Below the pieces are notes generated by a model. It did no database searches, was not told where the DNA came from, and saw only the letters and a program-made list of their open reading frames with translations. A program made the position numbers and the translations under genes. 31,724 nt of DNA, taken from a virus. Positions 478-29,379 of this stretch are shown here, one piece after another. The first letter of the stretch is position 1. Each line of letters begins with the position of its first letter. The stretch is from IMG/VR virus record IMGVR_UViG_3300032278_000069, positions 1 to 31,724 of that record; one strand, 5' to 3'.

Positions 478-601
478 CGATACAGCTTTAAAGCGTAAGC
501 TTTACTTGAGTTCGGCTTTCCCTTACGGGACGCCGAACGTAAGACGAGTGTTACACACGAGTGTTACAGCTTGCTCAAGTGTACAGCAAATAGCTGTATC
601 G
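478..601. repeat. Nested inverted and direct repeats; candidate operator array or structured RNA
   Basis: This non-coding stretch has several nested elements. A 10-bp perfect inverted repeat (CGATACAGCT 478-487, AGCTGTATCG 592-601) closes it. Inside are a 6-bp hairpin (489-494/499-504) with a GUAA loop, a perfect long-range pair CTTGAG 505-510 with CTCAAG 574-579, and a hairpin TTCGGC 511-516/GCCGAA 532-537 carrying an inner TCCC/GGGA stem. There is also a 12-bp direct repeat ACGAGTGTTACA (544-555, 557-568). TACAGC occurs at 481, 565 and 582, and its complement GCTGTA at 593-598, so alternative pairings exist. It may act as DNA (operators, origin) or as a folded leader of the SET mRNA. I do not recognise it as a known family. 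Confidence 0.5.
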
Positions 602-622
602 ACCCCGGCACAGGCTCACCCC

Positions 623-3434: not shown

Positions 3435-3464
3435 TTATTTTTCCTGGTTGGGTTGACATTCTGT

Positions 3465-3493
3465 ACTGTATACGAGACACTACTCCATATCAA
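3465..3493 (-). promoter_or_regulatory. Probable leftward promoter for the HTH/PrimPol operon
   Basis: On the minus strand there is TTGATA (3493-3488), a 17-bp spacer, then TACAGT (3470-3465); an overlapping TATACA gives a 15-bp spacing. It lies about 30 bases before ATG 3434. On the plus strand a perfect TTGACA occurs at 3453-3458, but the best -10 at 17 bp is GACACT, so the rightward promoter is less certain. Confidence 0.4.
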
Positions 3494-3507
3494 CCCCAAA
3501 TATGGAG
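3483..3507 (+). promoter_or_regulatory. Inverted repeat that can mask the SD of the first operon gene
   Basis: CTCCATAT (3483-3490) and ATATGGAG (3500-3507) are perfect complements around a 9-base loop. The GGAG at 3504-3507 is the only SD-like site for ATG 3514, so the folded RNA would hide it. The same repeat could be a DNA operator for the neighbouring Cro-like protein. Confidence 0.45.
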
Positions 3508-3513
3508 AATTTG

Positions 3514-3870
3514 ATGGAAGATGACGAGTGGGAGTACCTAGAAAAGACTACTGAATGGGTTCGTGCCCCAAGTTTGGAGGAGTTATGCACGGCACAGGAT
3601 CGTAGAAGAAAGAAGATGACGACCCAGTCTAATAGACTAGGGAAGGAATTTGTAGACCTTACTCATGCTGTACAGGGAGCAAAGGGTCGCTTGAAAGATC
3701 TGAGGGGAGAGATTTTAGACTGCATCCCCGAAGAAACTAAGACCATGCTGAATGATGAAGACACCCCACCTGGGGAGTATTCAGTTACTGTCGGGGAATA
3801 CCTATACACATTTAATAAAAAGGATAGTCGCAGGATTATTCTTAAAGTTAAACGACTAACACCTTTCTAA
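3514..3870 (+). CDS. Unknown 118-aa early protein
   Basis: I do not recognise the family. The protein starts with a very acidic stretch (MEDDEWEYLEKTTEW), has a central Lys/Arg-rich helical part likely to be coiled-coil, and ends in a beta-like segment (EYLYTFNKKDSRRIILKVKRL). I chose ATG 3514 rather than 3502 because GGAG lies 6 bases before 3514 and nothing SD-like precedes 3502. It is the first gene of the rightward operon, and its stop TAA runs directly into the AGGAGG of the Sak4-like gene. The position suggests a helper in recombination or a regulator. Nothing in the sequence shows an enzyme active site. Confidence 0.65.
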   Translation: MEDDEWEYLEKTTEWVRAPSLEELCTAQDRRRKKMTTQSNRLGKEFVDLTHAVQGAKGRLKDLRGEILDCIPEETKTMLNDEDTPPGEYSVTVGEYLYTFNKKDSRRIILKVKRLTPF

Positions 3871-6382: not shown

Positions 6383-6684
6383 GAAATAGTTCTCCCGAAC
6401 TTGCACAGCAATATCAAGTAGCATTAACTAAACGCGCTGGTTTAAACGGTCGTTTAGAAAGAGTTAAATCAGAGATAGAAAGCTTAGAGGAGAGGATAAA
6501 ATTAATAGGGAACTCTGATCACCCTAGTGACTTTACCCCAGATGAGGAGTTAGTAAAAGCTAGGGACAAGAAACGTCACCTAGAGAATTCACGCCTAGAT
6601 ATAGTTAATGACATCGGCTTTGTTGAGGCCGATATCAGAATGTGCGAGTACGAGAGCAGCGTCTGTGTAGACTGCGAAGACTAG
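6379..6684 (+). CDS. Coiled-coil protein, last gene of the rightward operon
   Basis: A 101-aa protein with two long amphipathic helices (about 8-40 and 58-85), rich in Leu, Glu, Lys and Arg (LNGRLERVKSEIESLEERIK), and three Cys near the end (MCEYESSVCVDCED). The start is ATG 6379, which overlaps the TGA of the nuclease gene and has GGAGG 5 bases upstream; a longer frame from 6265 lies wholly inside the nuclease gene. No enzyme motif is visible. A role as a partner of the nuclease is plausible from coupling only. Its TAG shares the palindrome CTAG with the stop of the giant late gene coming from the other side, so no terminator separates the two operons. Confidence 0.7.
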   Translation: MRNSSPELAQQYQVALTKRAGLNGRLERVKSEIESLEERIKLIGNSDHPSDFTPDEELVKARDKKRHLENSRLDIVNDIGFVEADIRMCEYESSVCVDCED

Positions 6685-9600
6685 AAGTTCTGCTTAAATC
6701 CAGAGGAGAACGACTTACCCCAACCACTACCGCCACCAGTATCCGGCGACTCACCAGGGAAGATGTCCGTCATCCATTCCCTAGCTCCTCGAACACCACC
6801 TAGGACTGGTATTCTCCTGTAGACTTCCCGCGCACCCATCCTCTGCTGACCTTTAGTCTCCTTACCCATCGCCCCTGCAATTAGACCCTGACCAAGGTTG
6901 TAGGCACCCATTGCATCACCAACTGATGGCCCGAATACCTGACTAGCTAACACCTGGGTTCCGTAAGATCCATTGTCGGCCCATGCTACAGCGTTGTGTA
7001 GAAGTTCTGCCACCAGACCAAGGCCACCTAGGTGCGTCAAACCCTCTAGATACCAGCCCATAAAGGTGCTTTCGTCACCGTGGATCTCAGGATCATAGCC
7101 ACCAACTCGGAGTAGGTTCTCCCAGTGCTCTAAGTTCCTGGCCCTTAAGTCCGGGCTTACTCCCTCTTCACCGCCGCGGAACTGTGCTACGTCCTTAGCT
7201 GCTAGTGCCGCAGCTCCGAATGCTGGGCCAGCTCCGAGGAACATAGCCAGGGGGGCGAACCTAGCACCTTCTGATGTGAAGATCTCTTTAGTGAGGATGC
7301 CAGGAGTAGCGTTCTTACCGAACGTCATTCTACCCATCATCATCGGGAACATCTTAAGCTGCATGGCCATAGCGCCCATAGGTGTCTGGCCCCACAGTGG
7401 GATGTCATTCACATTAGGAGTGAAGATAGTCTCGTTGGCTACTCTGATCATTGCTGCCTTAAGGGCTTCGTTATTCTGTATGTCAGCAATAGTATTTATC
7501 TGCTCGGCACCTTCCTTAGCAAGATCTTCCAAGCCGTACCTCTTAAGAATTCTAAATGCAATCTTACCTTTCCTAGAGTCCTTACCGTACTGCAGTAGAT
7601 TCTTCTGCTCGGCCTTAAACCAGTTAAATGCTACGGCTCCGGCCCACTCCCTGTTCATGTTTGTCCATGGCGTGAGTAAGGTAGCGTTAAAGAATCCAGT
7701 AGTTAGCTTGCTCCCGTCCACACCGTAGGCATGGACAAGTCTCTCGTGCACCATGTTCTCGATAGCTATACCACTTTCTCTCAGCATCTCCCTGTAGTTA
7801 TTGTTATTAACCGCCCATTCTGACAATCCCTTAAGCCAGGCTTTCATGCTACCTGTTCTTATGAGCGGGAGAACCGGATCAGTGAATGAGGTTAGCGTGG
7901 TCCAGCCCAGCATAGTGACAGCGTTGAAGTTCCTAATATTTTTAGAAACAGTGTGCTGTTGATCGAACCACCTAGATCCACTGTCTATAGGCTTACGTTG
8001 TAAGGCTTGGAAGAACCCATCCATGTGGTCCAGTTCGCGGTTATGTATTCTCTGCTTACCAGAGATTACTGCGATGGCTTCGGTTATGGCGTCAGCTCGT
8101 TTGTTCCACTCTGCATTGTCTGCTTCTTTGTACAACCCTCGAAGCATGTCACGGACTTCTTCCTTACGACCGTTAGATGCGTAGAGTTCTAGCGCCCTTT
8201 TAGCTGTAGCTTGAGCTTCCGCTTTATTGTGCTCACCCTTAAGGGGGGCTCGTATAACTTCTTCTTTGAAGTCAGCAATCGCAGGCCCGTCTTCACCTAC
8301 CGCCCCACGTACCTGACGCATCTTGAAGCTGTCGCTGCTAAGAAGCTGGGCAATCTCGCCATCAGCATGTCTTGGGTTGGCTAGTATCTGCCTGTATGCA
8401 AAGTAACTGTGGTTCTTCACACCCCATTTTTCATGGAATTTAAGCCTAGAGGTGGTTCCATCGAAGTACTTAACTAGGATGTCCCTTAGGTTGTTCAGCA
8501 TGTATGGCTCTAGGGCATCCAGGAATTCAGGGAACTCATCCAAGCGAATCATTCTCTGGAAATCTACGTGGTCTGTAGTTCTATCCTTAGTACCTTGTCC
8601 AGGAGGGGACATAGCTATACCATCTTCATCCAGTAGGTTATCCATCATCCCCCTGGCTTTAGTTATAGCGGTTGCCCTGTCGAGTAGTTTGGTTTCGCCT
8701 ATGGCCGAGGCAGAAGAAGCTTCTCCCTGGAAGTAGTCGGCCAGTCTTTCAACAAACTCTCGTTCATTTTTTCTTATTGAGGTTACGTCCCATATCTGCG
8801 GGAAGTAATTTTTTATTTTCCCTATAAGAACCCCTGCGTTTCTTAGAATTTCATGCTCGTTCTTAAATTTATCCCTTATAACTCTAAGCGCGTCCTTCCC
8901 ACCAGGAGAGAGTTTCTTTTCGAACTCGTTACCTGGCTCTCTTCTCAGGGCTTTCGTTAAAGTCGCCTCTTCCTTGGATATATCTTTAGCTGGATAGCTT
9001 CTCCTCAACCACCTGTATGCAGCGCCAGCTTTACCCTTGCCACCAGAACCGGGGAGGCTGTCGAGCATTGTCCATATTGGACGTACTAAACCAGCCAACC
9101 TTATGTGGTGTGATTCAAAAAATCCTACACCTGAAGAATCTTTAGGGCTTGCCCAGTCAGCTACGTTATTTTCGAATAGTCGTAACCGCTCGGTGTTAGT
9201 TCTTAACTGTACCCACGGGCTGAACTTATGTATCTCGGCACCATCGGCGTCAGTTAATTTTTTCCTGCCCATCAGTTTAGCCAGAGCATCTACAAGTCCT
9301 TTGGACGCGCCATTTGATTCCATAGCCGCGCCTAATGGTGCGAAACTAGCAGACCCATCTATAGGTATACCTTTTTCCATAGCTGCTGTGAGCCATATAC
9401 CACTGATAGTAGTCGATGGTGCAACTTCCCCAGGTAGATCAACCGTCTCTAGACCGTGTTGATGTACCACAGGATTACGCTCATCTAAAGCTAAAGATTT
9501 TAAGGTCTTAGCCTGACGTTCTTGGAAGGTCACTAGCCCACCGTACGGGAAAGATGAAGTTTCTAACTGCCTGGGTGCATCACTTCTATATCTATACGAT

Positions 9601-12600
9601 GTACCAGAATAAAGTATCCCGTCATACCCTAAGTCTTCTAGCAATCCACGTAATGATCTCTTACCGGATGCCTGCCCTGCAGCATCTTTAGTAGGAGCTA
9701 GTAGCTCTACCATAGCTTTGTATGCCTTGCCCCCATTCACATCAATATGTAAAGAGGAGAAAAAGTCTTGTGCTCTTAGCCCCTCAGATGGGAACAAACC
9801 CTTAGCAATGGCAGCTTCCATAACATCTTTAATCAGCGGACTGTTTATGTTGTAGAAATCCCTATCCCCAAGCCTAACTGGGTTCACTACATTTACAACT
9901 GAAGGCACTACTTTGTTGCTGCCTACCACCCCAAGATTAGCTAGTGCTTCCTCAGCTGATGTAGTAATTTGATGGTAACGATTTAGTATTCCTTGGTACC
10001 TGTCGATTAATACTTCCCTGTGCTCGTCAGGAGTTATCCCAAGACTTTCAGCCTTCATCTCGATCTGAGCTCGTTCATGCCTACCGTAACGTTGCAAGCT
10101 ACCTAATTTCTTGCTTATGGTGCCCATGTATTCCCTGTTATTCAGGAGATCCATGACTAAACCAGATGTATGTATGCGTTGCTCTGCAGATAAGTTTGCC
10201 CTGTTAGCTGCCAGAGATCCCTCTATTCCTAGCCCCTCAATTTCATTAGTTCGTACATCCTTTAAGCCAGAAGTAACAATGTCTTCTAGTGATTGCGCGT
10301 TTACGTTTGATGCTTCCTTAGCGTCCTTACCAAACGTAAAGTAGAAACCTCGCCCATACTCTGCATTATTTACCGCGCTTCTTAATGCGCCTTCCTGGCG
10401 CCAGAAAATATTTACTGCGCCGTCTGCAGCTCTTCCTATACCCGTGCCTACGTAATCCAGCATCCTGTTAAAGGATCTAGTGGGCATGGATTCTAATGTT
10501 TGCCCAACATAATCTTGTGCAAGATGTGCTGGTACAGCATCACTGTATCCCAGTAGCTCTACTAGTGGGTGTCCTTTGCCAGGGCGGTATGGTTCGAACA
10601 GGTTTCCGTAAGCATCCAACATACGGAATTCTTTCTTTATATCTTTCCTTCCTACCTGTCCGTTAAGTAAGTAAGCAGTGCCCTCGATAACCTTATTCAT
10701 TATCTCGTCTATGTTCCCATCCATAGGGGCCGCTGTTTTTTCAGACAAATGTTCTGCGGTATCTTTCGCGAACATCTTCATGACCTGAGCTTTCATTTCG
10801 GGAGCCATTACCGCTCCTTTCGGTACGCCCTGTAGTGTCAACAAACTTCCCTGGGCCCGATACCAATTCTCTACAGCTCTTAGATCGTCGTCACTTAGAA
10901 TGCGTGTTCTCCCTACAATTTCTAGGGCGTCCTGAATTACCTCCATGGGCGGAGATTTTCCCGCACTTGCGCGTTGCGCTAGAGCTCTCACAATACTTCT
11001 AAACTGGAGAAATTTCTTATCCCCATATTTAGTAAATGTAAATCCAGGCTGATCTTGTGGGTCTGCGCCTACCTTACCTACAAGACGATTCATATCGTCA
11101 TTCACTATTAAAGCTGGCGGACCTTCTATTCTTTCGGGGGGACCATAGTAGCTCCATTGATCCGGGTGACTTAAGAAATGGTATCCATCTTGTGGTGATG
11201 AATCCGTTAATTCCCCAGACGTTTTACCCATTAGAGCTAGCAGTCTATAAGCCATAGTTCTTTCAGCTATCTGCTTTGATGGATCTCTATTGCTAAAGTA
11301 AGAGAGCACCTCTCTTATATGAGAATTAGCATTAGGGAATTGACCATCCTGAGTAGCCAACCCACCCATATCCTCTATCTCTCGTTTAATAACCCTTATG
11401 GTGTGGTTGTGTACAACAGGTAATCTCTTATCTTCCTTAGACTTTCCTTTGTTAGCCTGCCTACGCCAGAATTCATAGTGGTATTGATTGGCTAGATCCT
11501 TATCCCCTGATTTCCAAGAACTAACTATCCCATCTAGTAGTTCTGCCCCACTAGCAGCGAGAACTTCTTTTTTCACCGGTACTGGATCTGGCGGTAATGG
11601 CGTTGACTGCGCCCTACTCTTCATCTCAACAGCCAGCATTTTTCCGTAACTAGTGCCGGAGTTTTCAGCGTACATCTCAACAAGCTGCGCTAAGGAAAGA
11701 TCCTTTACGTTAGCAGTACCACCTTCAGGCACCGTGTCAGGAAATTTCTCAGTAGCTTTGTCGGCCATGCGTTTCTCTGCCCTAGCCTGTTTATCGAGCC
11801 TTACCTTAATACTCTTCTTAAAGAAATTATGCCTACTTCCTCCCCTACCACCTGGAATTCTAAATTGGCCTTCGTTAGTTAAGTACAGGTGAGCACGGAT
11901 ACTTTCCGGCAATCGGTTAGGATCAAAGGACGATGAACTTGCGCTGTTGTAATAAGCCTTAGCAAATCTTTCTCGCAAGTCTTCAACTAACGGAGCTACT
12001 TCGTTTCTGTACGCCCTGTCCAGGTTTTGTATGGCGACATCCCATTGCTCTGTACCGGCCAAAGTCTCCAGATGATCTTCTACTCTGGAATAACCTGTCT
12101 CTAGGAAATCATCTCCTGTATCTATAATTTCCCTAGTTCCTCCCGGATCTATGGACGGGTCGAATCCCTCACCGATTCTTCCCGGTATCTCGCCTTCCTT
12201 ATGCGGGGGAACCCCCATAGCTTCGAAGATAGCCGCTGACGCATTACGCATTTTTACTCTGGCGGATTTAAATCTATCTCTACCTCCGCCCTTAAAAGCC
12301 TTAGCTCCCTTCTTACCGCCAGCCAGTACCCAGAAAAGCCTAGCTAGGTCTGCTGCCGCATCGAGTGGATCACCCCCTCCGTCTAATGCTTCTTCTACGT
12401 CCTTAGCGAGATTGTCCATCTGTAATGCGTGCTTCAACACCATCCCCTCTAATGCGGGAGATTTAGCTGGCACAGATGGAGCTGGATTTGCTCTCCCACT
12501 ATGAGCTGCATTTGCCTCACTCGCTGGAAGAATCTTATCAAACAATGGAGCCATTTCTGGGTCTATAGTTGACCCGTCCATGTACCTAAGGAAGAGGTTC

Positions 12601-15600
12601 TTTACATAGTTTACTATCTTCGTCCAGAAATCTTCGTTACCGATCTGGTCTCTGTACCTGTTCTGCATTGCCCATCGCTCACCCATGTGGGCAAACAATT
12701 CAAATGGCGAATCTAGTGCAGAGGATTTAATCAGGGTGTTGTCTGGCCCAAGAGTATCTGCAGTATGTAAGGCCAGTTTGTTTATATCTAAGATGCCGTT
12801 CGTGTAATACTTCCTCATAGAAGAAAGAAACTGAATCTGGTCTGCATCAGTAAGAACGTTGAACCATGCCCAGTGCATTACCTCGTGCACTAATTTAGAT
12901 GCGTCAGGTATATGTCGCTGGTTACCTAACCCAGTGGCTCCTATTTCTATAGTGTTAAGTTCCGCAGAACCTGAGGAAGGTAAGCGAGTGCCCCACATCC
13001 CATCTTGTCCTACAGGAGGAGTGTCTAGTACTGGGGCCCTACCAGATACGCCAGTTGCAGCAGCGTAGGATTTGGATACCCTTTCTAGAACGTCCCTAGC
13101 TACGTATTTAGATGCTTCATCGTAACCATCAAAGATGGTGCCAAGGCTAGTAATACTCTCAGCTAAATCATCATCGGCCCTTCTAATCCCACTTGGCGCT
13201 GCTTCAGCTCGTACAGCCAGTAACTTACCTAATAGGTCTACTCTGAATGCGTGCTCTTCAGGACTTTGTGCCCATGCCCCAACAATTGCACCAGTGCTGG
13301 GATCTCTTTCCCCACCTATTAAACGAAGTACTATTGCATCCAGCCCTTCACCGGTGATGGATATAACATTACCACTTTCCGTGAAATACTCTGGCCCGAA
13401 CATTTGCCGGAACATCTTAAAGTTCTGTTTGTCACCCCTAAAGATATGCTCGAATGCAGCGTCATCAGTGTCATTAATTAACTCTAACGTCCTAGCGTTC
13501 CACGTCTCTACTGGCTCATGAACAGCCTGCGGGTGCCCTTCAGGTAAGGCATTCAATGAAGAGCTGTCCGAGATAGAATCTGCTACCGCTATAGACGGAT
13601 TGTTCGCTACGTCCCTAGCTCTTGTACCGCGAGGTACTGAGAATATCCCCCAGTCCTCTTCTTTAGCCTTACCAAGCAAGGCTCTGTATCCGAGGCCAGC
13701 CTCTATCTGCTTGTTACTAATTACCCTAACGTTTTTAGGATCTGTGGGATCACTGTTACGACGGATGATAGCTACAATTCTGTCTCCGCTAGCTCGGTAT
13801 CCAGGCTTAGGTGCGCCAGGATCAGCGGCTGAAGGTGCGATACCTTGTGATGCCCTTACTGCATCAGCTTCGTCTATCAGCTTTTGTGTGTTACCAGTCC
13901 TGAGGAATTCCTTCATTGCGGATTCCATCGTTACCTGGTTAGCTGATTCAAGATTTCCAGCAGCTGTATCGAATGTCCCAGCTTCAATCTCACCAGCTAC
14001 TCTCGAAGCGTCGCCTCTGGTAGTAGTTTCTCTAGCCGCTCTGTAAAGAGTAAATCCAGTCGTGTCTCCTACGGGTAAATTTATATAGGGCAACTCATTT
14101 TCTGATCTAAACGACTCTACGGTTTTTCCTTTCTGACGGTCGAGGAACTCCTTCAGTGATTTAGTTTCATCTGGGGTTAGCTTTCCCCCAGTCTCTTTCC
14201 GTAGGTATAGTTCCCACGTTGGATGGTCGAAGGTTTCTTCTCTTAGCGTTGCTAGTTCTTTTTCAGCCCTAGCCTTCTCTACTTTCTTTTTCTTACTCCT
14301 AGCTGGAGCTGCTACTATCGCTTCAAGTTCAGCTCTACGCTTAGCTGTGGCGGCCTTGGCACTAGCTGCATGTTGCGAAGCAAGTTCTCCCATTCTCTTT
14401 GAGCGAGCTGCTTCTGTTTCTGGGGGCTTTGCCCTAGTAGTTGTAGTTGGAACTTCTTTCTTAGGTATTCTGTATGTAGCTGTTCCACCTGCTCCCTCTT
14501 CAATGCCAAGCTTTTTCATCCAGAAGGATACCTTCTCCACTGGGCCAGCATCAGCAAGCTCGTCTAGCTCAGCTCTGGAAAGATTTTTAAAATCGTCAGC
14601 CTCTAACGTAAGATGTTGTGCGAGCTCCCTATCTATTTCTCCGGTGTCTACATCTAACTGATGTTCGGCATGTCTTAGGCGTGCTATCGTAGAATGCATT
14701 CTGTTAGCGAATGCTTTGTTGTCGGCCTGCTTAACGCCACGCTCTCCCTTCTCTAGTATCTCGTCTATCTCTTTTTCCAGAACATAAATTTTCTGGTTCA
14801 GATTAGCTACCCTCTCCTTCCTGCCTTTCTCTGCATCTGCAGCACGTAGAGCTGTTCCCTCTACCTTTTCTCCGAAGTCTGCTACGCCACCGCCATGAGC
14901 CATGTCGATGTTTTCGACTGAGCTATAGCTACGTTTAGTAATTGGATCGTAGAAAACAATATCGCCACGCTTGGTGTACTGGTTCTTCCATACCTTCTCA
15001 CCACGTGTTTTCTCTAGGTCAGCAGCTTGATCTCGCATCTCTGCTATGCGCCGTTTCTTACGCGCAACCTCTTCTAGAAGAACTGACACCTCACCTTGAG
15101 CGCTCTCATCTACTTTGTAGACCATGCCCCTCTGCTTAAAAGCGATATCTCTTTCTATCTCTACTATTCTTCTGTTTACTTCGTCTGCTCGATGCCTGAG
15201 CTTAGCGGCTACATCCTTTCTCCTGGGATCTGACGCGGTCTCTTCACGTATCCTTCTGGCCTCTACAGCCCCATGATCTAAACGCCTAGCGTCTGCCAAG
15301 ATTTCATGGCCAGTTGCTATGAATGGGATAGGCTCTGACAGGTTCCTTGTTTCCGCTACAGCTCTAGCGCTTTCTTCTCCTCGGAATGCTCTGTCGGTAC
15401 CTTCACCTTGATCCATAGAATCTCTAACAAGTCGAGACATCTCTGAATCTTTTCTCTGCTCCCTAGCTTCAGCAATTCTGTAAGCTAGTTCTTCCTCGTC
15501 CATTCTTTCTTCTTTACTTCTTTGTCCGACAGTTTCTCCTTCTACCCTGTCTAGCGCTCTTTGCGTCTGACTCTTACCTCTAGCAACTTTTGGCCCAGCT

Positions 15601-17849
15601 GTTCCACCCAACACAGAAGACATGATCTGATGCTGTATAAGGTTTCTCTGCTGTTGTTTATACTCCTCTCCTCTACCGGAGGAGATAACATCTTTGAGTC
15701 GAGGCTGCCTTTTCATCTGTGGCCAGCCTTCCAGGAATAGGGAGAATCTCCTGTCGGTTTCTCTTTCTATGTAGCGACGAGTTTCATTATCGAACTGATC
15801 GAGCTGATGCTTGAATGGAAGCCAGTCCGATGGCGGTATATCTGCAAGTTCATCGGCACGTAAATAAGCCCTATCCAATACACCCATAACTATCTCTAGT
15901 ATCTTAGGATCAGATATCTGGCTCTTTACATGTTGCTCCATGAATTCCCTGTTACCGAGAACCCAGTCAACATCCATACTTCTAGCGTATGAGATAGCCT
16001 TAGTTAAGTGTTGCCAGGCTATAGCGTCGTCACCAAATTCCATCATGCCGGGCTCTGTTCCTGCCCGCTCTACTTCATTCCTCTCCAACATTGAAAGCAG
16101 TTCTTCTTTTAGATCGGCGGTCTCCCTGGTCCTAGCATCACGAAGTTTATGGTGAGAGGCTAGTGCTTTTATTGTCCTGCCAGGTCTAACGAGCTTGCCA
16201 GCAGCTTTGTCCACCGGGGTCAGCTTGTCGGCTTCTTTAGCAGCTAAGAACAACCTGGCGTCACTATCTACCCGCGGACGCCCCTTCTTCTTAGGCTGTG
16301 GTTCTTCAGACTCTACAATTTTTGTTAGAGGCATTTCTTTCTGAGCCCCGTACTGCGCACCTATCCTGTCTTCCAGCAACTCCAGATCTTTACCAACAAG
16401 ATTTTGGAGCGACTCAGGAATTTCATCCCATTCTCCCGTACGAATGTAGGATTCTACGAACGTGTTGTATTCACTCTTTATTGCTGCGTTAGACTTCGCC
16501 CTTCTTTCTCCTTCCCTTACTTTATTAGGCGCGTTAGAAGCTAACAGGTCATCTATCTCAGCCTGTTCTCTAGCAATCTTTTCTGGTACTTGCTGTAAAT
16601 TCCTAAGACGAGCGTCTTGTACTAGAAGCTCTTGTATTTGATCCGCTAATGGATGATCTTCCCCACTTAGGTCGGAAGCTCTTGTGTAATCATCCAGTTG
16701 TTCAGCTATTGCCCCACGCTCTTCTATGACCAGAGCTTGCGTAGGATCTTTCCCAGCTTCTAGTATTGATGGTATTGCTTCCCTTCCCGGAACTCCGGTA
16801 AGTACCGGCTCTGTTCCCTCAAGACCTGAAACAGCACGTAGTCCTTCTGGCCCAAGAGCTTCTGCTTCGTCCTTGGTTGGTAGTGGCATTACTGGTCGAT
16901 CTTCATCGCCAGTACGGATGGGGAGATCCATTGGTATGGTCTCACCCTCTGCTGTGCCAGTTACTCTTGGAGGTACTGCGCCTGCTCCGCCAGTACGTAC
17001 TGCCTTCACAGACTTTTTAAATTCTTTCTCTGTTAGCTTGGCGATGTCTCCGTCGCCCCAGCCAGCTCCGCGTAAGGACTGTATGCCTTTGAGCCCTCTC
17101 GATCCCGTGAACCAGGCTGCGCCACCAGCGATAGCTGCGCCTAGTGCACCGCCTATGATTCCCCCGCCTGCAACCCATCCAGCTAACTCCCAAGGCTCGA
17201 AGTCTTCTTGCTGACTAAGCTCTATAGCACGTGTCTGCCTCGCAGTTTCGTACGCGCCCATAGCGCCAGCGCCTATACCAGCTTCCCACTTAGCGCCCTT
17301 CTTTATGGCCCTCTTGCCGGGATCAGAAAGGGCTGTGCCTTTAAATCCTCGGGCTACTTTCCCCGTTAGGGCTGCACCGCGCATTGCTTTCAATGCCAGT
17401 GAGTAGGGTATAAGGTTTACTGGGTCGAGTACGGCACCGCCGACATAGCCCCGGGTCCAGTTCCACCAGTCCATACCACCTGGCTGCCCTGGCCATGGCA
17501 TTTTCTCGAATACACCGTCTAGCCTGTTCTTAAGTTCTTTTGTTTCATCGTCATCAGTTCGAGAAGTAATAGCTTCTTCTACTGCACCGCCTGTTCCTGG
17601 CGTTCCGATGTTAGATATAGACCAAGCCTTGTCCCGGTACCATTTGGCCACCATCTCTTCGTCGGAAGAAAATTCTGTACCCTTCTTCTCGTAGAGGCGA
17701 CGTATGTCAGCCAGGACTTTCGCATTCTTTAGCAGCTTTTCTGGGAGTATGTCATCCAGGTCATACCCGCTGTCATCGTTAAGTGGCTGCTCTTGATTCA
17801 GCCCCTGTAGATATGCGTCGTAAGCTTGTTGTGTAGATATCTTTGCCAT
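6681..17849 (-). CDS. Giant polyvalent virion/ejection protein, 3,722 aa, with zincin and ADP-ribosyltransferase-like domains
   Basis: One uninterrupted frame of about 410 kDa, the last gene of the late operon. Residues 134-250 are Gly/Ala-rich with likely membrane segments (for example 224-247). A long charged coiled-coil middle follows (about 380-1250). A zincin motif HEVMHW has H1655, E1656, H1659 and a likely third ligand E1717 (SPFELFAH). Residues about 2480-2760 match polyvalent ADP-ribosyltransferase domains: FWRQEGALRS, GRGFYFTF (F2502) and LGYDGILYSG (D2743). The C-terminal 400 residues hold Gly/Ala/Met-rich hydrophobic stretches (about 3528-3552). The start shares a base with the preceding stop (TAATG). 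Known giant phage polyvalent proteins are packaged and ejected with the DNA. I found no phage-type RNA polymerase motifs and no lytic transglycosylase. Domain calls rest on motifs only. Confidence 0.8.
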   Translation of the reverse strand: MAKISTQQAYDAYLQGLNQEQPLNDDSGYDLDDILPEKLLKNAKVLADIRRLYEKKGTEFSSDEEMVAKWYRDKAWSISNIGTPGTGGAVEEAITSRTDDDETKELKNRLDGVFEKMPWPGQPGGMDWWNWTRGYVGGAVLDPVNLIPYSLALKAMRGAALTGKVARGFKGTALSDPGKRAIKKGAKWEAGIGAGAMGAYETARQTRAIELSQQEDFEPWELAGWVAGGGIIGGALGAAIAGGAAWFTGSRGLKGIQSLRGAGWGDGDIAKLTEKEFKKSVKAVRTGGAGAVPPRVTGTAEGETIPMDLPIRTGDEDRPVMPLPTKDEAEALGPEGLRAVSGLEGTEPVLTGVPGREAIPSILEAGKDPTQALVIEERGAIAEQLDDYTRASDLSGEDHPLADQIQELLVQDARLRNLQQVPEKIAREQAEIDDLLASNAPNKVREGERRAKSNAAIKSEYNTFVESYIRTGEWDEIPESLQNLVGKDLELLEDRIGAQYGAQKEMPLTKIVESEEPQPKKKGRPRVDSDARLFLAAKEADKLTPVDKAAGKLVRPGRTIKALASHHKLRDARTRETADLKEELLSMLERNEVERAGTEPGMMEFGDDAIAWQHLTKAISYARSMDVDWVLGNREFMEQHVKSQISDPKILEIVMGVLDRAYLRADELADIPPSDWLPFKHQLDQFDNETRRYIERETDRRFSLFLEGWPQMKRQPRLKDVISSGRGEEYKQQQRNLIQHQIMSSVLGGTAGPKVARGKSQTQRALDRVEGETVGQRSKEERMDEEELAYRIAEAREQRKDSEMSRLVRDSMDQGEGTDRAFRGEESARAVAETRNLSEPIPFIATGHEILADARRLDHGAVEARRIREETASDPRRKDVAAKLRHRADEVNRRIVEIERDIAFKQRGMVYKVDESAQGEVSVLLEEVARKKRRIAEMRDQAADLEKTRGEKVWKNQYTKRGDIVFYDPITKRSYSSVENIDMAHGGGVADFGEKVEGTALRAADAEKGRKERVANLNQKIYVLEKEIDEILEKGERGVKQADNKAFANRMHSTIARLRHAEHQLDVDTGEIDRELAQHLTLEADDFKNLSRAELDELADAGPVEKVSFWMKKLGIEEGAGGTATYRIPKKEVPTTTTRAKPPETEAARSKRMGELASQHAASAKAATAKRRAELEAIVAAPARSKKKKVEKARAEKELATLREETFDHPTWELYLRKETGGKLTPDETKSLKEFLDRQKGKTVESFRSENELPYINLPVGDTTGFTLYRAARETTTRGDASRVAGEIEAGTFDTAAGNLESANQVTMESAMKEFLRTGNTQKLIDEADAVRASQGIAPSAADPGAPKPGYRASGDRIVAIIRRNSDPTDPKNVRVISNKQIEAGLGYRALLGKAKEEDWGIFSVPRGTRARDVANNPSIAVADSISDSSSLNALPEGHPQAVHEPVETWNARTLELINDTDDAAFEHIFRGDKQNFKMFRQMFGPEYFTESGNVISITGEGLDAIVLRLIGGERDPSTGAIVGAWAQSPEEHAFRVDLLGKLLAVRAEAAPSGIRRADDDLAESITSLGTIFDGYDEASKYVARDVLERVSKSYAAATGVSGRAPVLDTPPVGQDGMWGTRLPSSGSAELNTIEIGATGLGNQRHIPDASKLVHEVMHWAWFNVLTDADQIQFLSSMRKYYTNGILDINKLALHTADTLGPDNTLIKSSALDSPFELFAHMGERWAMQNRYRDQIGNEDFWTKIVNYVKNLFLRYMDGSTIDPEMAPLFDKILPASEANAAHSGRANPAPSVPAKSPALEGMVLKHALQMDNLAKDVEEALDGGGDPLDAAADLARLFWVLAGGKKGAKAFKGGGRDRFKSARVKMRNASAAIFEAMGVPPHKEGEIPGRIGEGFDPSIDPGGTREIIDTGDDFLETGYSRVEDHLETLAGTEQWDVAIQNLDRAYRNEVAPLVEDLRERFAKAYYNSASSSSFDPNRLPESIRAHLYLTNEGQFRIPGGRGGSRHNFFKKSIKVRLDKQARAEKRMADKATEKFPDTVPEGGTANVKDLSLAQLVEMYAENSGTSYGKMLAVEMKSRAQSTPLPPDPVPVKKEVLAASGAELLDGIVSSWKSGDKDLANQYHYEFWRRQANKGKSKEDKRLPVVHNHTIRVIKREIEDMGGLATQDGQFPNANSHIREVLSYFSNRDPSKQIAERTMAYRLLALMGKTSGELTDSSPQDGYHFLSHPDQWSYYGPPERIEGPPALIVNDDMNRLVGKVGADPQDQPGFTFTKYGDKKFLQFRSIVRALAQRASAGKSPPMEVIQDALEIVGRTRILSDDDLRAVENWYRAQGSLLTLQGVPKGAVMAPEMKAQVMKMFAKDTAEHLSEKTAAPMDGNIDEIMNKVIEGTAYLLNGQVGRKDIKKEFRMLDAYGNLFEPYRPGKGHPLVELLGYSDAVPAHLAQDYVGQTLESMPTRSFNRMLDYVGTGIGRAADGAVNIFWRQEGALRSAVNNAEYGRGFYFTFGKDAKEASNVNAQSLEDIVTSGLKDVRTNEIEGLGIEGSLAANRANLSAEQRIHTSGLVMDLLNNREYMGTISKKLGSLQRYGRHERAQIEMKAESLGITPDEHREVLIDRYQGILNRYHQITTSAEEALANLGVVGSNKVVPSVVNVVNPVRLGDRDFYNINSPLIKDVMEAAIAKGLFPSEGLRAQDFFSSLHIDVNGGKAYKAMVELLAPTKDAAGQASGKRSLRGLLEDLGYDGILYSGTSYRYRSDAPRQLETSSFPYGGLVTFQERQAKTLKSLALDERNPVVHQHGLETVDLPGEVAPSTTISGIWLTAAMEKGIPIDGSASFAPLGAAMESNGASKGLVDALAKLMGRKKLTDADGAEIHKFSPWVQLRTNTERLRLFENNVADWASPKDSSGVGFFESHHIRLAGLVRPIWTMLDSLPGSGGKGKAGAAYRWLRRSYPAKDISKEEATLTKALRREPGNEFEKKLSPGGKDALRVIRDKFKNEHEILRNAGVLIGKIKNYFPQIWDVTSIRKNEREFVERLADYFQGEASSASAIGETKLLDRATAITKARGMMDNLLDEDGIAMSPPGQGTKDRTTDHVDFQRMIRLDEFPEFLDALEPYMLNNLRDILVKYFDGTTSRLKFHEKWGVKNHSYFAYRQILANPRHADGEIAQLLSSDSFKMRQVRGAVGEDGPAIADFKEEVIRAPLKGEHNKAEAQATAKRALELYASNGRKEEVRDMLRGLYKEADNAEWNKRADAITEAIAVISGKQRIHNRELDHMDGFFQALQRKPIDSGSRWFDQQHTVSKNIRNFNAVTMLGWTTLTSFTDPVLPLIRTGSMKAWLKGLSEWAVNNNNYREMLRESGIAIENMVHERLVHAYGVDGSKLTTGFFNATLLTPWTNMNREWAGAVAFNWFKAEQKNLLQYGKDSRKGKIAFRILKRYGLEDLAKEGAEQINTIADIQNNEALKAAMIRVANETIFTPNVNDIPLWGQTPMGAMAMQLKMFPMMMGRMTFGKNATPGILTKEIFTSEGARFAPLAMFLGAGPAFGAAALAAKDVAQFRGGEEGVSPDLRARNLEHWENLLRVGGYDPEIHGDESTFMGWYLEGLTHLGGLGLVAELLHNAVAWADNGSYGTQVLASQVFGPSVGDAMGAYNLGQGLIAGAMGKETKGQQRMGAREVYRRIPVLGGVRGAREWMTDIFPGESPDTGGGSGWGKSFSSGFKQNF

Positions 17850-20386
17850 TATTTAAATCCTAATGCTTTACCAGCTTCATTCCATACCCAAACATTTCTA
17901 ACTCCGCCGCCGCGAAAAGTGCTGACTTCATCCATCGAACCAAATCTCTCGTCGCCTTCGAATTCAGATTGTGATTTCATTTTCCATTTGTAGAAAGATC
18001 CATCACTCTTACCGATGTCTTGTCCTCTTACAGCGCCGTCAGCTATAACAGAGCCAGCTCCTCTTGCTGCTCTGACTCTCACCCATTCGCCGTCATCTTC
18101 ATTAAGGCCCATTGCTACCCATGGCGTGATTAGAGTTGCTTCGAGATCTGATGTAGGACTGGGACGTGTAGTCGCATTGTTCGCAGAGTCAGCACTGACT
18201 TCATGCGAGTCATCCAAGTTGTAATCAGCTCCCATAACTTCTTTTAACAAGCCCTGTAATTTCTCTACATTTGCCTGCAGATTAGCCCTGTCTTTCACAT
18301 TCCCGTAAAGCATCCTACTTGGGTTAGCTTCGTACATTTCTGCTTGCTTAGATAAGAAGGCTATACTCTTCTTTATTCCTTGTATGGCAGAATGGTGATC
18401 AGCCGATAGTTGTGAACCACCCCATTCTCTTATACCCATAGGACCTGCCTGACGATGTGATCTATTTTCTACATGCTGTTGTACAACAGCAGCTAAATTG
18501 CTAGCATCTTGTACTCTTTCGTCAGAGTCTTTTAAGAAATCCTCTTCCGTTACATAGGCAGGACCAACCTCTGCACCAGCAAGATCCATTGCTCTTTGAT
18601 CAACGTAATCTTTCTGAGTTAGGGGGGAACTTATTCCATGCTCGCTTGAATAAGCCGAGAAGATGCTACTTGCGTTTGATCTTAACCAACTCTGGATATC
18701 CAGGTTGTTCATTCCAGGAGCTGAAAGTTCCTTAGAGTGACTTAGTATTGCGCTCATTGCCGCAGACATAAAGTCAGAACTTGATTGTGGGTCGTATCTG
18801 TAGTTCTTATCACCCTGTAAGTAGAGTTGTAGTACAGCATTTCTAGCCGCATCTACGAATGATTCCGCTGTGAAGTTAGTATCATCAGCAAGCTTCATGT
18901 CCTTATCTACTGGCCAGTCTTCCATCCTGAGAGTTCCACCAACCTTATCTGCGTAGTCCTTGCCTGCGAACTCACCTTCCAGATCACCCACATTCTTTTT
19001 AATTGCTGCTCTCTGTAGGGCTGCAAATCCAGACTTGGAGTAGGTAAAGTTCTCCTTCGCTCCTTGATTTATTATGTCCCACATTAAATCGTAGTCCGGT
19101 GTTGTCTTAAGCTCTGCGAGTCCTGGGTATTTAGCATCATCAGCTAACCCTAAGAAAGCTTGCCATCTTTCTTCGTCACTTATATCTCTGCCTAGCCAGA
19201 AAGACATTCTTTTCTCTGTGAGCATGTCATCTTTTATGGCCTTGGATGATGAAGATCTACGATCATCAAGGCTTTTGGTGAGGGCAGCGGTAGCCCGATC
19301 AACTACTAGTTGGATTATCGGGGAAGTTTCAGGTATGCCAGTCATTGCTGATATCTGTTTTGCAGTCATGACCTCGTCAGTCCTACCCATCTCAGTATTG
19401 ATATCTCCGCCGTATTTATTCCATGCGTTTCTAGCTGCATCCTCCAATCTAGGCTGCACATCAACTTCTGCGTACTTAGCATCCATCAAGTTTTTAAAGT
19501 CGCCTTCCTGTACACCTAACTGTGCGTAAGTTTCAGACAGCGCTTTGCCCTTATCCCCGCTAAGGATAAGATTAGAGTTAAAGGCGGTGTTAAATTCCTG
19601 AGCTAGTGCTCTCTGAGATTGCGTCAGCTGTGCTTGTGCTGTTTCAATCTCCATGTTCTTTAGTTGGTCTCTCCTAGAGAGTTCCCCTTGTATGGATGCC
19701 TGATCCCTGAAAACCGTTTTCCAGAAATCCTCTTGGAGGATAGACCCAAAGCCAGTTCTATACTGCCCCTGTAGCCCTTTCATTCTTTCAGCAGTCATTG
19801 CCTGATCTTTAAGGTATCCTTCCCTAAGAGTCGCCCATCCCTCCGCAGCTTCCCCTCTTTTAGATCTCCTCAGATCTTGCGTTTGTTTATTTATCCATGC
19901 ATATAGGCTGGCCGGAGTTTTATCAGTAGGTCTTAGCCAAGTCTGTTCTTCCAGATCTAGGCCACGCGTTTTTAACCACTTATCTCTAGCATCCTTTAAA
20001 GTACCTTCGAGATGCTCAGTTGTTGGATACTCTCCGGGAGTCATTGCAGCATTGCTCATGATGCTCCCGTACAACTCGTCTAATTTCTTTCTGTTGTAAC
20101 CAGCCCGTTCGTTGGATTGAGTAAACTGAGTATGCTGTAATGCCTTAGAGTTTCTATCAGCTATTGTTTGCAGAGAAGCATCGTCCGGCAGTAGGGATAG
20201 TAAGTCCGCATCGCCATTAGCTAATGAGTCACGGTAACTTTTAAGCTCATTAAGACCCCAGTGTGTGTTCGTTCGAACACCTTCACCGAAGTCAGAAACT
20301 ATAGAGCGACGCCTTTCTTCGAAGTCGTCGTCTCCAGAGGCTATGGACTCGCCGATTCCCTGAGCTATTCCTGCAAATACTGGCAT
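17849..20386 (-). CDS. Probable internal virion (ejection) protein, 845 aa
   Basis: No family recognised with certainty. The protein starts with a short amphipathic segment (MPVFAGIAQGIGESIASG) and is then mostly helical and charged, with many Gln, Asp and Lys residues; there are no clear membrane spans or catalytic motifs. It sits between the 499-aa protein and the giant protein, one base after the former's stop and overlapping the latter's start by one base (TAATG). GGGGG lies about 6 bases upstream of ATG 20386. In podoviruses the genes between the tail proteins and the end of the late operon code for internal core or ejection proteins (T7 gp14-16, P22 gp7/16/20), and this length and helical content fit such a part. 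The role is inferred from position. Confidence 0.62.
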   Translation of the reverse strand: MPVFAGIAQGIGESIASGDDDFEERRRSIVSDFGEGVRTNTHWGLNELKSYRDSLANGDADLLSLLPDDASLQTIADRNSKALQHTQFTQSNERAGYNRKKLDELYGSIMSNAAMTPGEYPTTEHLEGTLKDARDKWLKTRGLDLEEQTWLRPTDKTPASLYAWINKQTQDLRRSKRGEAAEGWATLREGYLKDQAMTAERMKGLQGQYRTGFGSILQEDFWKTVFRDQASIQGELSRRDQLKNMEIETAQAQLTQSQRALAQEFNTAFNSNLILSGDKGKALSETYAQLGVQEGDFKNLMDAKYAEVDVQPRLEDAARNAWNKYGGDINTEMGRTDEVMTAKQISAMTGIPETSPIIQLVVDRATAALTKSLDDRRSSSSKAIKDDMLTEKRMSFWLGRDISDEERWQAFLGLADDAKYPGLAELKTTPDYDLMWDIINQGAKENFTYSKSGFAALQRAAIKKNVGDLEGEFAGKDYADKVGGTLRMEDWPVDKDMKLADDTNFTAESFVDAARNAVLQLYLQGDKNYRYDPQSSSDFMSAAMSAILSHSKELSAPGMNNLDIQSWLRSNASSIFSAYSSEHGISSPLTQKDYVDQRAMDLAGAEVGPAYVTEEDFLKDSDERVQDASNLAAVVQQHVENRSHRQAGPMGIREWGGSQLSADHHSAIQGIKKSIAFLSKQAEMYEANPSRMLYGNVKDRANLQANVEKLQGLLKEVMGADYNLDDSHEVSADSANNATTRPSPTSDLEATLITPWVAMGLNEDDGEWVRVRAARGAGSVIADGAVRGQDIGKSDGSFYKWKMKSQSEFEGDERFGSMDEVSTFRGGGVRNVWVWNEAGKALGFK

Positions 20387-20387: not shown

Positions 20388-21887
20388 TTAGCCCCCGAAG
20401 ATCCTACCTAGACCGCCCCAGAATCCTGTATTAGCATAACCGTACGATCCCGCAGGCCCAGTTCTCTGATTAGCCCAAGTACCCCATTTCTTAAATCCTT
20501 GGTCTATTGCTGTTCCTAATCCCTGACCGGCAGCGTTGGCGTACTCATCCATTCTTGCCGATCTATCGTTGTTAAACGACATGCCTCCGCCCCACAGTCC
20601 TTGTGCTCCACTTAGTAAACTAGTGACACCAGGAGCAGACAATCTAGTCGTGTCATACGCCCCTGAACCTGGATCACGCCAGGATACTGCAGATCCAAGA
20701 GTGCTCTGTGGGCCGTACCCTTGGCCAACCCTGAATGCGGAGGCGTTGTCTACAGCGCTAGGAACACTGGATAAGCTTGGCGCCCAGCCAGTAGCAGAAA
20801 GTCTCTGCCCTCTGTTGGCCGCAGTTGCTATCTGTCTGTCGTATAGACCGGTGCCTACATTAGTCTGTTGTGCAGCCTGTAAGTATGGTTCAAGTGGGCT
20901 GCCATAAGTTGTTGCTGTTCGACCAAGAAGAGCGTTCTGTCTGGCTATCTCTGCAGCTTGTGCCTGTTCAGATGCACCCTGCTGGCCTGTCATAAAGTTT
21001 CTTGCCCAATCGTAAGATTGGTTATACTGCTGCTCGTACATAGATGCTGCGTTGTTTATGATCCTGGCCATTGTATCTTCCGCCATTGACCCTGGACGTG
21101 CCGAAGGTGCGAACATCCCTTTACGCATTACGTCAGCTTCCATGCCGGAACTCATTCCGGTTACCGCTCGTTCAATAGACTTGTCTGTTTGAGCGCGTCT
21201 TCCGGCAGCTATCTTATCTATTGCTTCTGGCGAGTAGGATAATGCTTGTGTGACGGGGCCAAGTGTTTTCCTAGTCTCTTCCATCTCGTCAGCATAACGA
21301 CTACTTTTTTGCATCAACTGATTTCTAAGGGAGAGATCTGATTGACGCTCAGCGTCCTTTATTCTTTGCGCCTTAGTAAACTGCTGAGTATCTTGTAGCC
21401 TTTCTGATTTTAATGTTCTCTGGTAGTCCTTAAGTTCATCAATATCCTCTTGCCGTTCAAGACCGTACTGGCCTTGTAAGCGCTGAAGTTCTTTTCGAGC
21501 AACGGATCTCTCTGATTTAGACAGATTCTGATTTCTCAGCATCTGCTGTATCTGCCACATACGCTCAGACGCAGCTGATTTATCTATAAAGTCTCTACGA
21601 TCTCTCTGCTGCCCCCTTTCGCGGTGAAGCATTTCATCCTCTCGCTCCATTCTAGAGCGAAGGAAGTCCCTCTGTTCTAGACTAAGGCGAGTGTTTAACT
21701 GATTTTGTCGAAGTTGGACATCTTGCAGATACCGGTCACGCTCCAACTGCTGTTGGGCTTGAGTCCAGTATAGATTTCCCTGTCCCCGGGAATACCGCTT
21801 GTCTGCCTGAGCTGCTTCAGCTGAAGCTTGCGCCTGTTTACCAGACGTATACGCGCCGACCGCGGCTGAGATTATCGCGCCCCACAT
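20388..21887 (-). CDS. Probable internal virion (ejection) protein, Gln/Arg-rich, 499 aa
   Basis: The N-terminus is a short hydrophobic segment (MWGAIISAAVGAYTSG) followed by an Ala/Gln-rich helix and a very long coiled coil rich in Arg, Gln and Glu (about 20-210, for example LERDRYLQDVQLRQNQL). The C-terminal half is Gly/Ser/Ala-rich with low-complexity turns and ends WGGLGRIFGG. A small hydrophobic head plus a long helical body is typical of T7 gp14- or P22 gp7/gp20-like proteins that insert in the cell envelope during DNA ejection. SD GGGGA lies 5 bases before ATG 21887. The gene is 14 bases after the 615-aa gene. There are no enzymatic motifs. The assignment rests on composition and context. 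Confidence 0.62.
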   Translation of the reverse strand: MWGAIISAAVGAYTSGKQAQASAEAAQADKRYSRGQGNLYWTQAQQQLERDRYLQDVQLRQNQLNTRLSLEQRDFLRSRMEREDEMLHRERGQQRDRRDFIDKSAASERMWQIQQMLRNQNLSKSERSVARKELQRLQGQYGLERQEDIDELKDYQRTLKSERLQDTQQFTKAQRIKDAERQSDLSLRNQLMQKSSRYADEMEETRKTLGPVTQALSYSPEAIDKIAAGRRAQTDKSIERAVTGMSSGMEADVMRKGMFAPSARPGSMAEDTMARIINNAASMYEQQYNQSYDWARNFMTGQQGASEQAQAAEIARQNALLGRTATTYGSPLEPYLQAAQQTNVGTGLYDRQIATAANRGQRLSATGWAPSLSSVPSAVDNASAFRVGQGYGPQSTLGSAVSWRDPGSGAYDTTRLSAPGVTSLLSGAQGLWGGGMSFNNDRSARMDEYANAAGQGLGTAIDQGFKKWGTWANQRTGPAGSYGYANTGFWGGLGRIFGG

Positions 21888-28191: not shown

Positions 28192-29379
28192 TTACGCTAC
28201 GGCCGTCCAGTTTTTAATGTGCGCATGGACCTTGTCCTGGAGCAGCTCTAGGCCACACTCAGTCAGGTACTCATGCTTCACCGCATCTTCATCTGGGCTC
28301 TGACGATCTCTTAACAGCTGAGTATCACGTCCCTTGAGGAAACGATAACGCACATATGGCAGGTCGATAATGACCATTGAATTGGCCATTTCCGGGATCT
28401 GCCGGAATTGTGGGTGGAGATGAACCAGAAGATCACCAGCGAAAGTCGAGTAACGAGTCATGCTTACGCCGTACGTTCCTTCGACAACGGTTGGGGACCA
28501 GCGGTCTTTTCCGATCTTCTGCAGGTTGCTTGCAACACGCGCACCACAGAATGCCAGTTTCTGATTTGAACCGAAAGCAAAAATGTTCTCAATCAGCTCT
28601 TTATCCAGTTCATCTTCAGTAATGCCGCCACCGGAATAACTACCGGCAGTCGCATCAATGTTGATGGTTAATGAATTAAGAAGCCCACCAGTAAAGCGGG
28701 TAGGTTGAGCAGTGGAGCCGTTGGACTCGTGTTTGTAGCCCCAGAACATAGCGCGTTCGATATCGCTCATATGGAGTTTCAAACCTTTGGTCGTCACCTC
28801 GTCTTCCTTATCGCCAGTTCGGAGGTAGGTCGAACGTAACGTGTTCGTTACCTTGAAGGCTGTTCGGAAAATCTGGGTGTAGTTGGATACCACAGTTGCA
28901 TCAAAAGACACTGCCGTTGGGCTAACGTCCCCTTCAACTGCCGCGAAGCCACCGATGATTAAATCGGCGTTATCGGCAATCTGATGGGATGTAGCACCAA
29001 TGTTCCTTTCAACCGTAAGAGTGGTTGCATTAGGGGCATCTGCGGAACAACGCATTACTTCACCGGTATCAACGTTTATGATAAGAGCACCTTTTACACA
29101 GAACTTCGTGCGGTCGGTACCACTACCACCGTCAACGGTAATTGCAGTGCCGGTTGTATTGGCAATTGCACCGTTAACGACTAATTTCCGATCTGGCATT
29201 TCATCACGGAAGTTTTTGTACTCAGGGTCATCTGTAGGCTCGCTCTGAGTCATAGCGAGCAAAGCATTCAGAGGCGCTGTGCCATTCGGCTCCAGCAGCG
29301 TGAATAGCTCACGGTAGTTTTTGGGGCGAAAGTCAACACCAAACTCGCCAGTGCCCCGTAAACCTTGGATAGCTGCCAT
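28192..29379 (-). CDS. Major capsid protein
   Basis: A 395-aa protein at the expected place between the scaffold and the adaptor. It has an N-terminal arm (GEFGVDFRPKNYRELFTLLE), a beta-rich inserted region near 65-140 (TAITVDGGSGT, DTGEVMRCS), a central helical block (about 155-225) and a C-terminal beta part (YVRYRFLKGRDTQLL). The size, composition and context match podovirus capsid proteins of the HK97 fold. AAGGAGGT sits 7 bases before ATG 29379, the strongest SD of the late genes. Arg codons are nearly all CGN in this gene, whereas neighbours often use AGA/AGG, in keeping with very high expression. A terminator follows. A fold match from sequence alone is not possible. Confidence 0.82.
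   Translation of the reverse strand: MAAIQGLRGTGEFGVDFRPKNYRELFTLLEPNGTAPLNALLAMTQSEPTDDPEYKNFRDEMPDRKLVVNGAIANTTGTAITVDGGSGTDRTKFCVKGALIINVDTGEVMRCSADAPNATTLTVERNIGATSHQIADNADLIIGGFAAVEGDVSPTAVSFDATVVSNYTQIFRTAFKVTNTLRSTYLRTGDKEDEVTTKGLKLHMSDIERAMFWGYKHESNGSTAQPTRFTGGLLNSLTINIDATAGSYSGGGITEDELDKELIENIFAFGSNQKLAFCGARVASNLQKIGKDRWSPTVVEGTYGVSMTRYSTFAGDLLVHLHPQFRQIPEMANSMVIIDLPYVRYRFLKGRDTQLLRDRQSPDEDAVKHEYLTECGLELLQDKVHAHIKNWTAVA

What the first reader, a model, noticed from the sequence alone, without database searches (positions are those of the whole stretch)
6681..17849. An 11.2-kb single gene for a 3,722-aa polyvalent phage protein
One frame takes up a third of the window with no break. 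It joins N-terminal membrane-like segments, a long coiled coil, a zincin site, an ADP-ribosyltransferase-like domain and a hydrophobic C-terminus. Giant polyvalent proteins are known in phages as multi-effector proteins delivered with the DNA; this combination in a P22/T7-like late operon looks little described. A multi-enzyme protein that arrives first in the host is a prime candidate for counter-defence or host takeover.
Basis: partly seen in the sequence, partly recalled or inferred. Interest (0 to 1): 0.8.

Follow-up and report, generated by a model that had tools for sequence, protein, structure and literature searches.

The report
Giant enzyme-carrying phage DNA-ejection protein
The 3,722-residue protein is a giant version of the protein that short-tailed phages push into a cell to open a path for their DNA, with about 2,500 extra residues inserted that include a conserved protease-like site and a decayed toxin-like enzyme domain; it belongs to a widespread marine phage family in which only its first tenth had been named.

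Summary
The ORF is real, but on the minus strand. It is one conserved gene: about 25 related IMG/VR loci carry single ORFs of about 2,900-3,500 aa. The window is a fragment of a CRP-810-type marine phage. The protein sits in the T7 gene-16 position. Its two ends are gp16-like: T7 gp16-family profile hits run colinearly, and the modelled C-terminus resembles T7 gp16 and two other ejectosome/core chains clearly above background. Between them lie about 2,500-2,650 extra residues where the gp16 profile has at most about 100. This insert carries a zincin-like site (HEVMHW + PFELFA), a second zincin-like region that has lost HExxH here, and an ART-PolyVal-like domain. Relatives keep the ART motif; in this lineage the catalytic His is replaced (Arg here). 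No member in which both zincin sites could be read (about 61) lacks both. Best reading: an ejectosome protein used as a chassis for polyvalent cargo, with a required protease and a dispensable, probably inactive ART here. Protease activity, packaging and injection are inferred. It is a new variant of a known kind.

The parts
6681..17849 (-). Giant gene, 3,722 aa, gp16-position ejection protein with inserted cargo
   Evidence: single ORF conserved in relatives
17091..17732 (-). N-terminal ejection-protein block (residues 40-253); contains glycine-rich hydrophobic stretch 222-249
   Evidence: hhalign to Pelagibacter phage HTVC105P internal virion protein D E=4.5e-24; phrog_342 (T7 gp16 family) 98-457 vs 284-508 E=4.9e-4; family mapping to phrog_342 311-416
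13950..15299 (-). Charged linker region (residues 851-1300), much of it present only in the window's own branch, possible coiled coil
   Evidence: column occupancy mostly 0.06-0.2 (0.3-0.5 around 951-1050) among 45 homologues; coiled coil not tested
12510..12917 (-). Zincin-like site 1 (residues 1645-1780): H1655, E1656, H1659, candidate third ligand E1717
   Evidence: HExxHW + P.E.FA in 42 of the 44 first-set members covered; the two without it keep site 2
10650..10982 (-). Zincin-like site 2, degenerate here (residues 2290-2400; HExxH of relatives replaced)
   Evidence: CRP-810 HEIGH / relatives HExxH + WFAES; window QDALE
9480..10487 (-). ART-PolyVal-like domain, probably inactive (residues 2455-2790; R2484 where relatives have His; Y2503 and D2743 kept)
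   Evidence: PF18760 matches 14 of 27 relatives, best 1.2e-9, not the window; alpha/beta model resembles cyanophage A4 pre-ejectosome chain 9k3a_B Z 9.2
6804..9056 (-). C-terminal gp16-like module (residues 2932-3682), hydrophobic stretch 3531-3552
   Evidence: phrog_342 518-1209 colinear in relatives; model vs T7 gp16 7eyb_I Z 11.2, PhiM1 8vb2_A Z 12.5, E1004 9vvp_W Z 11.5, next row 6.7; TL-2011b E=2.7e-18
17849..20386 (-). 845-aa gene in the gp15 position, overlapping the giant gene's start
   Evidence: gene order and TAATG overlap; no family match, so by position only
20388..21887 (-). 499-aa gene in the gp14 position
   Evidence: position only
28192..29379 (-). Major capsid protein, anchors the late operon
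   Evidence: phrog_1328 E=3.3e-39

Best explanation
The protein is the third and largest ejection (internal core) protein of a CRP-810-type podovirus, the counterpart of T7 gp16. Its N-terminal ~280-450 residues and C-terminal ~750-800 residues are the gp16-type ejectosome parts: packed above the portal, threaded out through the tail and refolded at the inner membrane to pass DNA (inferred by homology). Inserted between them is a polyvalent cargo of about 2,500-2,650 residues. Its constant element is a zincin-type metallopeptidase (site 1, intact here), most likely needed to cut the giant chain itself, in the head or after entry, so that cargo and channel parts separate; acting on a host protein is the alternative. 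The ART-like domain is an active-looking H-Y-D ADP-ribosyltransferase in most relatives but has lost its histidine here, and survives under purifying selection as a structural domain. Shown: gene, architecture, homologies, motif states. Inferred: packaging, ejection, protease activity, self-processing.
For: Gene order MCP ... gp14, gp15, gp16 positions as in T7 and CRP-810. gp16-family profile phrog_342 matches both ends colinearly: 311-416 to window ~127-280, 518-676 to ~2932-3089, 784-1209 to ~3251-3682. Structure of C-terminus: T7 gp16 (7eyb_I), PhiM1 and E1004 ejectosome/core chains Z 11-12.5 against 6.7 for the next row. N-terminus matches HTVC105P internal virion protein D E=4.5e-24; C-terminus matches 1,004- and 1,059-aa non-giant internal virion proteins of TL-2011b and CKB-S2. 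Middle model matches large polyvalent phage proteins E=1e-19. ART-like motif and fold also in cyanophage A4 pre-ejectosome chain. Site 1 is intact in 42 of 44 first-set members covered; the site-1-less lineages (L033/L048, L210, L219) all keep site 2.
Against: The window protein alone gives no enzyme-family hit. The zincin call rests on motif and conservation; no zincin fold was recovered and the match to the N4 C1 zincin is weak (P=0.009). Direct profile comparison with T7 gp16 sequences is weak (P=4e-4 and 0.02). AlphaFold models are of low to middling confidence (pLDDT 59 and 66). No proteomics, so virion presence is unproven. 'At least one zincin always kept' has only a few independent site-1 losses behind it.
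Confidence: 0.72

Rival explanations
1. Ejection protein as above, but the zincin acts on host targets (for example a cell-envelope or defence protein) rather than on the phage chain.
For: Polyvalent zincins are proposed to act either on the polypeptide or inside the host (PMC5512222); no lytic transglycosylase domain is present, so another envelope-acting enzyme could be needed.
Against: A protease kept across a wide range of lineages while the ART is lost fits self-processing better; no envelope or host-target features found.
Confidence: 0.3
2. Purely structural giant ejection protein: all enzyme-like domains are dead relics and the insert only fills or spaces the head core.
For: Window slices match only virion families; ART His lost and zincin 2 decayed here.
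Against: HExxHW and the downstream PxExFA glutamate stay intact in nearly all members, and lineages losing site 1 keep site 2.
Confidence: 0.2
3. N4-like virion RNA polymerase with zincin and ART.
For: N-terminal hits to phrog_2206 virion RNA polymerase in 7 members (best 1e-4); N4 vRNAP is also ~3,500 aa with an HExxH domain (PMC12633501).
Against: No RNA-polymerase match in any slice or relative; N- and C-terminal profiles do not align with N4 vRNAP.
Confidence: 0.03
4. Assembly artefact or fusion of several genes.
For: In the deposited CRP-810 genome the region is three overlapping ORFs.
Against: About 25 independent contigs have one ORF; a 94% relative of CRP-810 reads through; the CRP-810 gp35/gp34 junction sits on a 31-bp tandem duplication.
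Confidence: 0.01

Closest known systems
CRP-810-type phages, internal virion protein D region (gp36-gp34, OR671924; PMC11288001)
   Same: Same gene order; 30-32% identity in pieces along the length; same family
   Different: Deposited as three ORFs, only the first 381 aa named; CRP-810 keeps zincin 2 and the ART motif
T7 gp16 (internal virion protein D)
   Same: Genome position; colinear gp16-family profile; C-terminal fold
   Different: 1,318 aa with N-terminal lytic transglycosylase; no zincin or ART insert
Polyvalent proteins with MPTase and ART-PolyVal domains (Iyer et al. 2017, PMC5512222)
   Same: Zincin motif plus ART-PolyVal family in one giant late-gene protein; BFVD matches
   Different: Cargo sits inside a T7 gp16-type chassis; ART decayed here
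N4 virion RNA polymerase (PMC12633501)
   Same: ~3,500 aa ejection protein in the gp16 slot, enzyme between N-terminal and C-terminal regions, HExxH subdomain
   Different: No RNA polymerase; ends not alignable
Cyanophage A4/A-4L ORF27 (PDB 9k3a chain B)
   Same: ART-like YHGT...GSGTYF motif and fold in a solved pre-ejectosome chain
   Different: 1,717 aa; ends not similar

Membership tests
T7 gp16-type ejection proteins | Third gene of the ejection operon (after gp14-, gp15-position genes) | tested here: met
   gene order in window, CRP-810 and T7
T7 gp16-type ejection proteins | Homology of N- and C-terminal parts to the gp16 family | tested here: met
   phrog_342 colinear matches
T7 gp16-type ejection proteins | gp16 fold of the C-terminal region | tested here: met
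   VIA-align Z 11.2 to T7 gp16, 12.5 and 11.5 to two other ejectosome/core chains, background 6.7; low-confidence helical model
T7 gp16-type ejection proteins | N-terminal lytic transglycosylase (variable in the family, absent in P22-like phages) | tested here: not met
   no match in any slice; not a defining feature according to PMC8954989
T7 gp16-type ejection proteins | Packaged in the head and ejected | not testable with these tools
   needs virion proteomics
Polyvalent proteins | Several unrelated enzymatic domains in one chain | tested here: inconclusive
   zincin motif intact; ART-like and second zincin degenerate in the window, intact in relatives
Polyvalent proteins | Encoded among late virion genes | tested here: met
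ART-PolyVal (PF18760) | H-Y-D active site | tested here: not met
   window H replaced by R2484, Y2503 and D2743 kept (motif definition PMC5512222)
ART-PolyVal (PF18760) | Match to the family profile | tested here: not met
   no match in the window record; 14 of 27 relatives match
Zincin metallopeptidases | HExxH with downstream third ligand | tested here: met
   H1655, E1656, H1659 and conserved E1717
Zincin metallopeptidases | Zincin fold | tested here: inconclusive
   no zincin recovered by Foldseek/VIA on the 1,181-residue model; N4 C1 weak match
N4-type virion RNA polymerase | Single-subunit RNA polymerase domain | tested here: not met
   no match in slices or relatives

The most novel reading that the evidence does not exclude
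gp16-type ejection proteins serve as a general delivery chassis: cargo enzymes are inserted between the channel-forming ends, exchanged and lost between lineages (ART here, a staphylococcal-nuclease domain in Aeromonas phage phiA008), and a built-in zincin that may never be lost frees them during infection.
Probability: 0.35. Interest if true: 0.78.

Novelty: new variant of a known kind. Interest (0 to 1): 0.57.

Why it matters
It joins two themes studied apart: the T7 ejectosome and polyvalent injected proteins. It gives thousands of 'hypothetical' residues in an abundant marine phage family a testable architecture, with a cultured model (CRP-810). It also makes concrete how a phage could deliver enzymes as one chain with its DNA channel, and which of them is indispensable.

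Tried and rejected
Whole-protein and 750-aa slice scans of Pfam gave only sub-threshold hits (PAS_7, ABATE, DUF948), rejected as chance. Foldseek against the PDB with both models gave nothing at E<=0.001; most VIA rows for the middle model are helical bundles. PDB sequence search with the N- and C-terminal and middle alignments gave no relatives (the designed-helix hits are composition). T7-only gp16 alignment was too shallow for a clear hhalign match. The gp15-position protein matched no family even with 15 relatives. The zincin-seeded scan was not used to judge zincin loss because it selects for the motif. The PNAS paper on cyanophage A4 (PMC12002296) is not held. N4-type polymerase and fusion artefact considered and rejected.

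Full report
Observation. The 3,722-codon frame at 6681-17849 exists but lies on the minus strand; the plus strand is closed. A run this long has a chance probability near 10^-94. The window is a 31.7-kb IMG/VR viral record. The giant gene starts with an ATG that shares one base with the upstream stop (TAATG).

What kind of phage. No known phage matches at DNA level. At protein level the nearest isolate is Roseobacter (CHUG) phage CRP-810, which has the same order: prim-pol, Sak4-like ATPase, SSB-like, Cas4-like exonuclease, giant region, gp15-, gp14-position genes, tail and capsid genes. CRP-810 and 251 related uncultured genomes were proposed as a new family (PMC11288001), with 'internal virion protein D' shared by all subgroups; the word polyvalent does not occur in that paper.

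One conserved gene. In the deposited CRP-810 record the region is three overlapping ORFs (381, 2,016 and 839 aa), and the gp35/gp34 junction coincides with a 31-bp tandem duplication. A 94% relative reads through as one ORF of at least 2,809 aa. An alignment-based scan brought 80 loci; about 25 have a complete single ORF of 2,965-3,506 aa, and a second scan added more of 2,910-3,297 aa. Against L004 (97%), dN/dS is 0-0.16 in every segment.

Ends: an ejection protein. PHROG family phrog_342, the T7 gp16 family, matches relatives at both ends in the same order: profile 311-416 maps to window residues ~127-280, 518-676 to ~2932-3089 and 784-1209 to ~3251-3682. In the window itself the hits are 98-457 vs 284-508 (E=4.9e-4) and 562-675 (E=1.4e-6 for this record). 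Between profile ~416-508 and ~518 the window has about 2,475-2,650 residues. The N-terminal alignment matches Pelagibacter phage HTVC105P internal virion protein D (E=4.5e-24). The C-terminal alignment matches 1,004- and 1,059-aa proteins next to a lytic transglycosylase gene in TL-2011b and CKB-S2. The C-terminal AlphaFold model, though of low confidence (pLDDT 59), has its three best VIA matches in phage ejectosomes: PhiM1 8vb2_A Z 12.5 (275 residues, 5.8 A), E1004 9vvp_W Z 11.5 (321 residues), and 7eyb_I Z 11.2 (240 residues), then a drop to 6.7. Chain 7eyb_I is T7 gp16 itself, and a chain of 9vvp is a T7 gp16 homologue by sequence. The aligned T7 residues, 552-862, include the stretch picked by sequence (591-670). 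For helical models Z near 12 can be common, so I rely on the fact that all three leading rows are ejectosome or core chains.

Middle: polyvalent cargo. Residues 1645-1780 hold HEVMHW and, 58 residues on, PFELFA. In the first set, 42 of the 44 members covered have HExxHW with this glutamate. Relatives such as CRP-810 have a second HExxH around window 2300; the window has lost it. Residues 2455-2790 align with an ART-like region in which most relatives have [YFW]HG[TS]...G[PRS]GxY...YDG; Pfam ART-PolyVal matches 14 of 27 members, best 1.2e-9, but not the window. ART-PolyVal is defined by H, Y and D (PMC5512222); taking the D to be that of the YDG motif is my reading. The window has R2484, Y2503 and D2743; its relative L005 also lacks the tyrosine motif, while its sister group L009/L010 keeps WHGT, so the loss is within this branch. 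The middle model matches viral proteins named 'large polyvalent protein associated domain-containing' (E=1.1e-19, 3.1e-10, 4.7e-5). Its alpha/beta ART part also matches 9k3a_B, the cyanophage A4 pre-ejectosome chain (Z 9.2, 159 residues). That chain is A-4L ORF27 and carries YHGT...WGSGTYF at the aligned place. Z 9.2 alone would not be convincing; fold, motif and ejectosome context together are.

A pattern of loss. Over about 61 members in which both zincin sites are covered, none lacks both: site 1 is missing only in L033/L048, L210 and L219, and all of these keep HExxH at site 2. ART motifs are missing in the window branch, the L016-L019-L023 branch and the L067-L076 branch. The number of independent site-1 losses is small, so this is a lead, not a proof.

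Mechanism. I propose that the protein is packed with the gp14- and gp15-position proteins, ejected ahead of DNA, and that its ends build the gp16-type inner-membrane part. The zincin most likely cuts the chain, as proposed for N4-type polyvalent proteins (PMC5512222), so that a 3,700-residue chain can be packed or released. The ART-like domain probably contributes nothing enzymatic here. All steps after the homology assignment are inferred.

Extent of novelty. gp16-like proteins reviewed in PMC8954989 are 609-1,337 aa. N4 vRNAP (~3,500 aa) fills the gp16 slot and has an HExxH subdomain (PMC12633501), but its ends do not align with this protein (the last ~490 residues of vRNAP were not in the compared stretch). 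Polyvalent zincin-ART proteins are known. The new element is a T7 gp16-type chassis holding polyvalent cargo, a pattern that also shows in Aeromonas phage phiA008, whose 2,050-aa protein joins a nuclease domain, an HExxH site and the same C-terminal module.

Noticed in passing
window 449-952 (+): 167-aa ORF with a SET domain (PF00856, E=8.4e-9), unusual in a phage; the true start may be an internal ATG.
   Followed up: partly
L002 (CRP-810) about 13990-14160 and 19990-20190: The CRP-810 giant gene is split into three ORFs; one junction sits on a 31-bp tandem duplication, so the split may be recent or an assembly error.
   Followed up: partly
L093 4768-10920: Aeromonas phage phiA008 2,050-aa protein has a staphylococcal-nuclease domain (8e-7), an HELGH site and the same C-terminal module.
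   Followed up: partly
L095 20116-25269 (minus): Cyanophage A-4L 'tail protein' ORF27, solved as 9k3a chain B, carries an ART-like YHGT...GSGTYF motif in the pre-ejectosome.
   Followed up: partly
L096: Poseidonocella sp. HB161398 genome carries a 3,278-aa homologue with HEMAHW; probably a prophage of this family.
   Followed up: no
window 23751-24242 (-): 163-aa gene of phrog_21390 (E=1.3e-25); the CRP-810 gene in the same position is called a GNAT acetyltransferase.
   Followed up: no
window 17849-20386 (-): The gp15-position protein diverges very fast (11-21% identity to relatives) and matches no family.
   Followed up: partly
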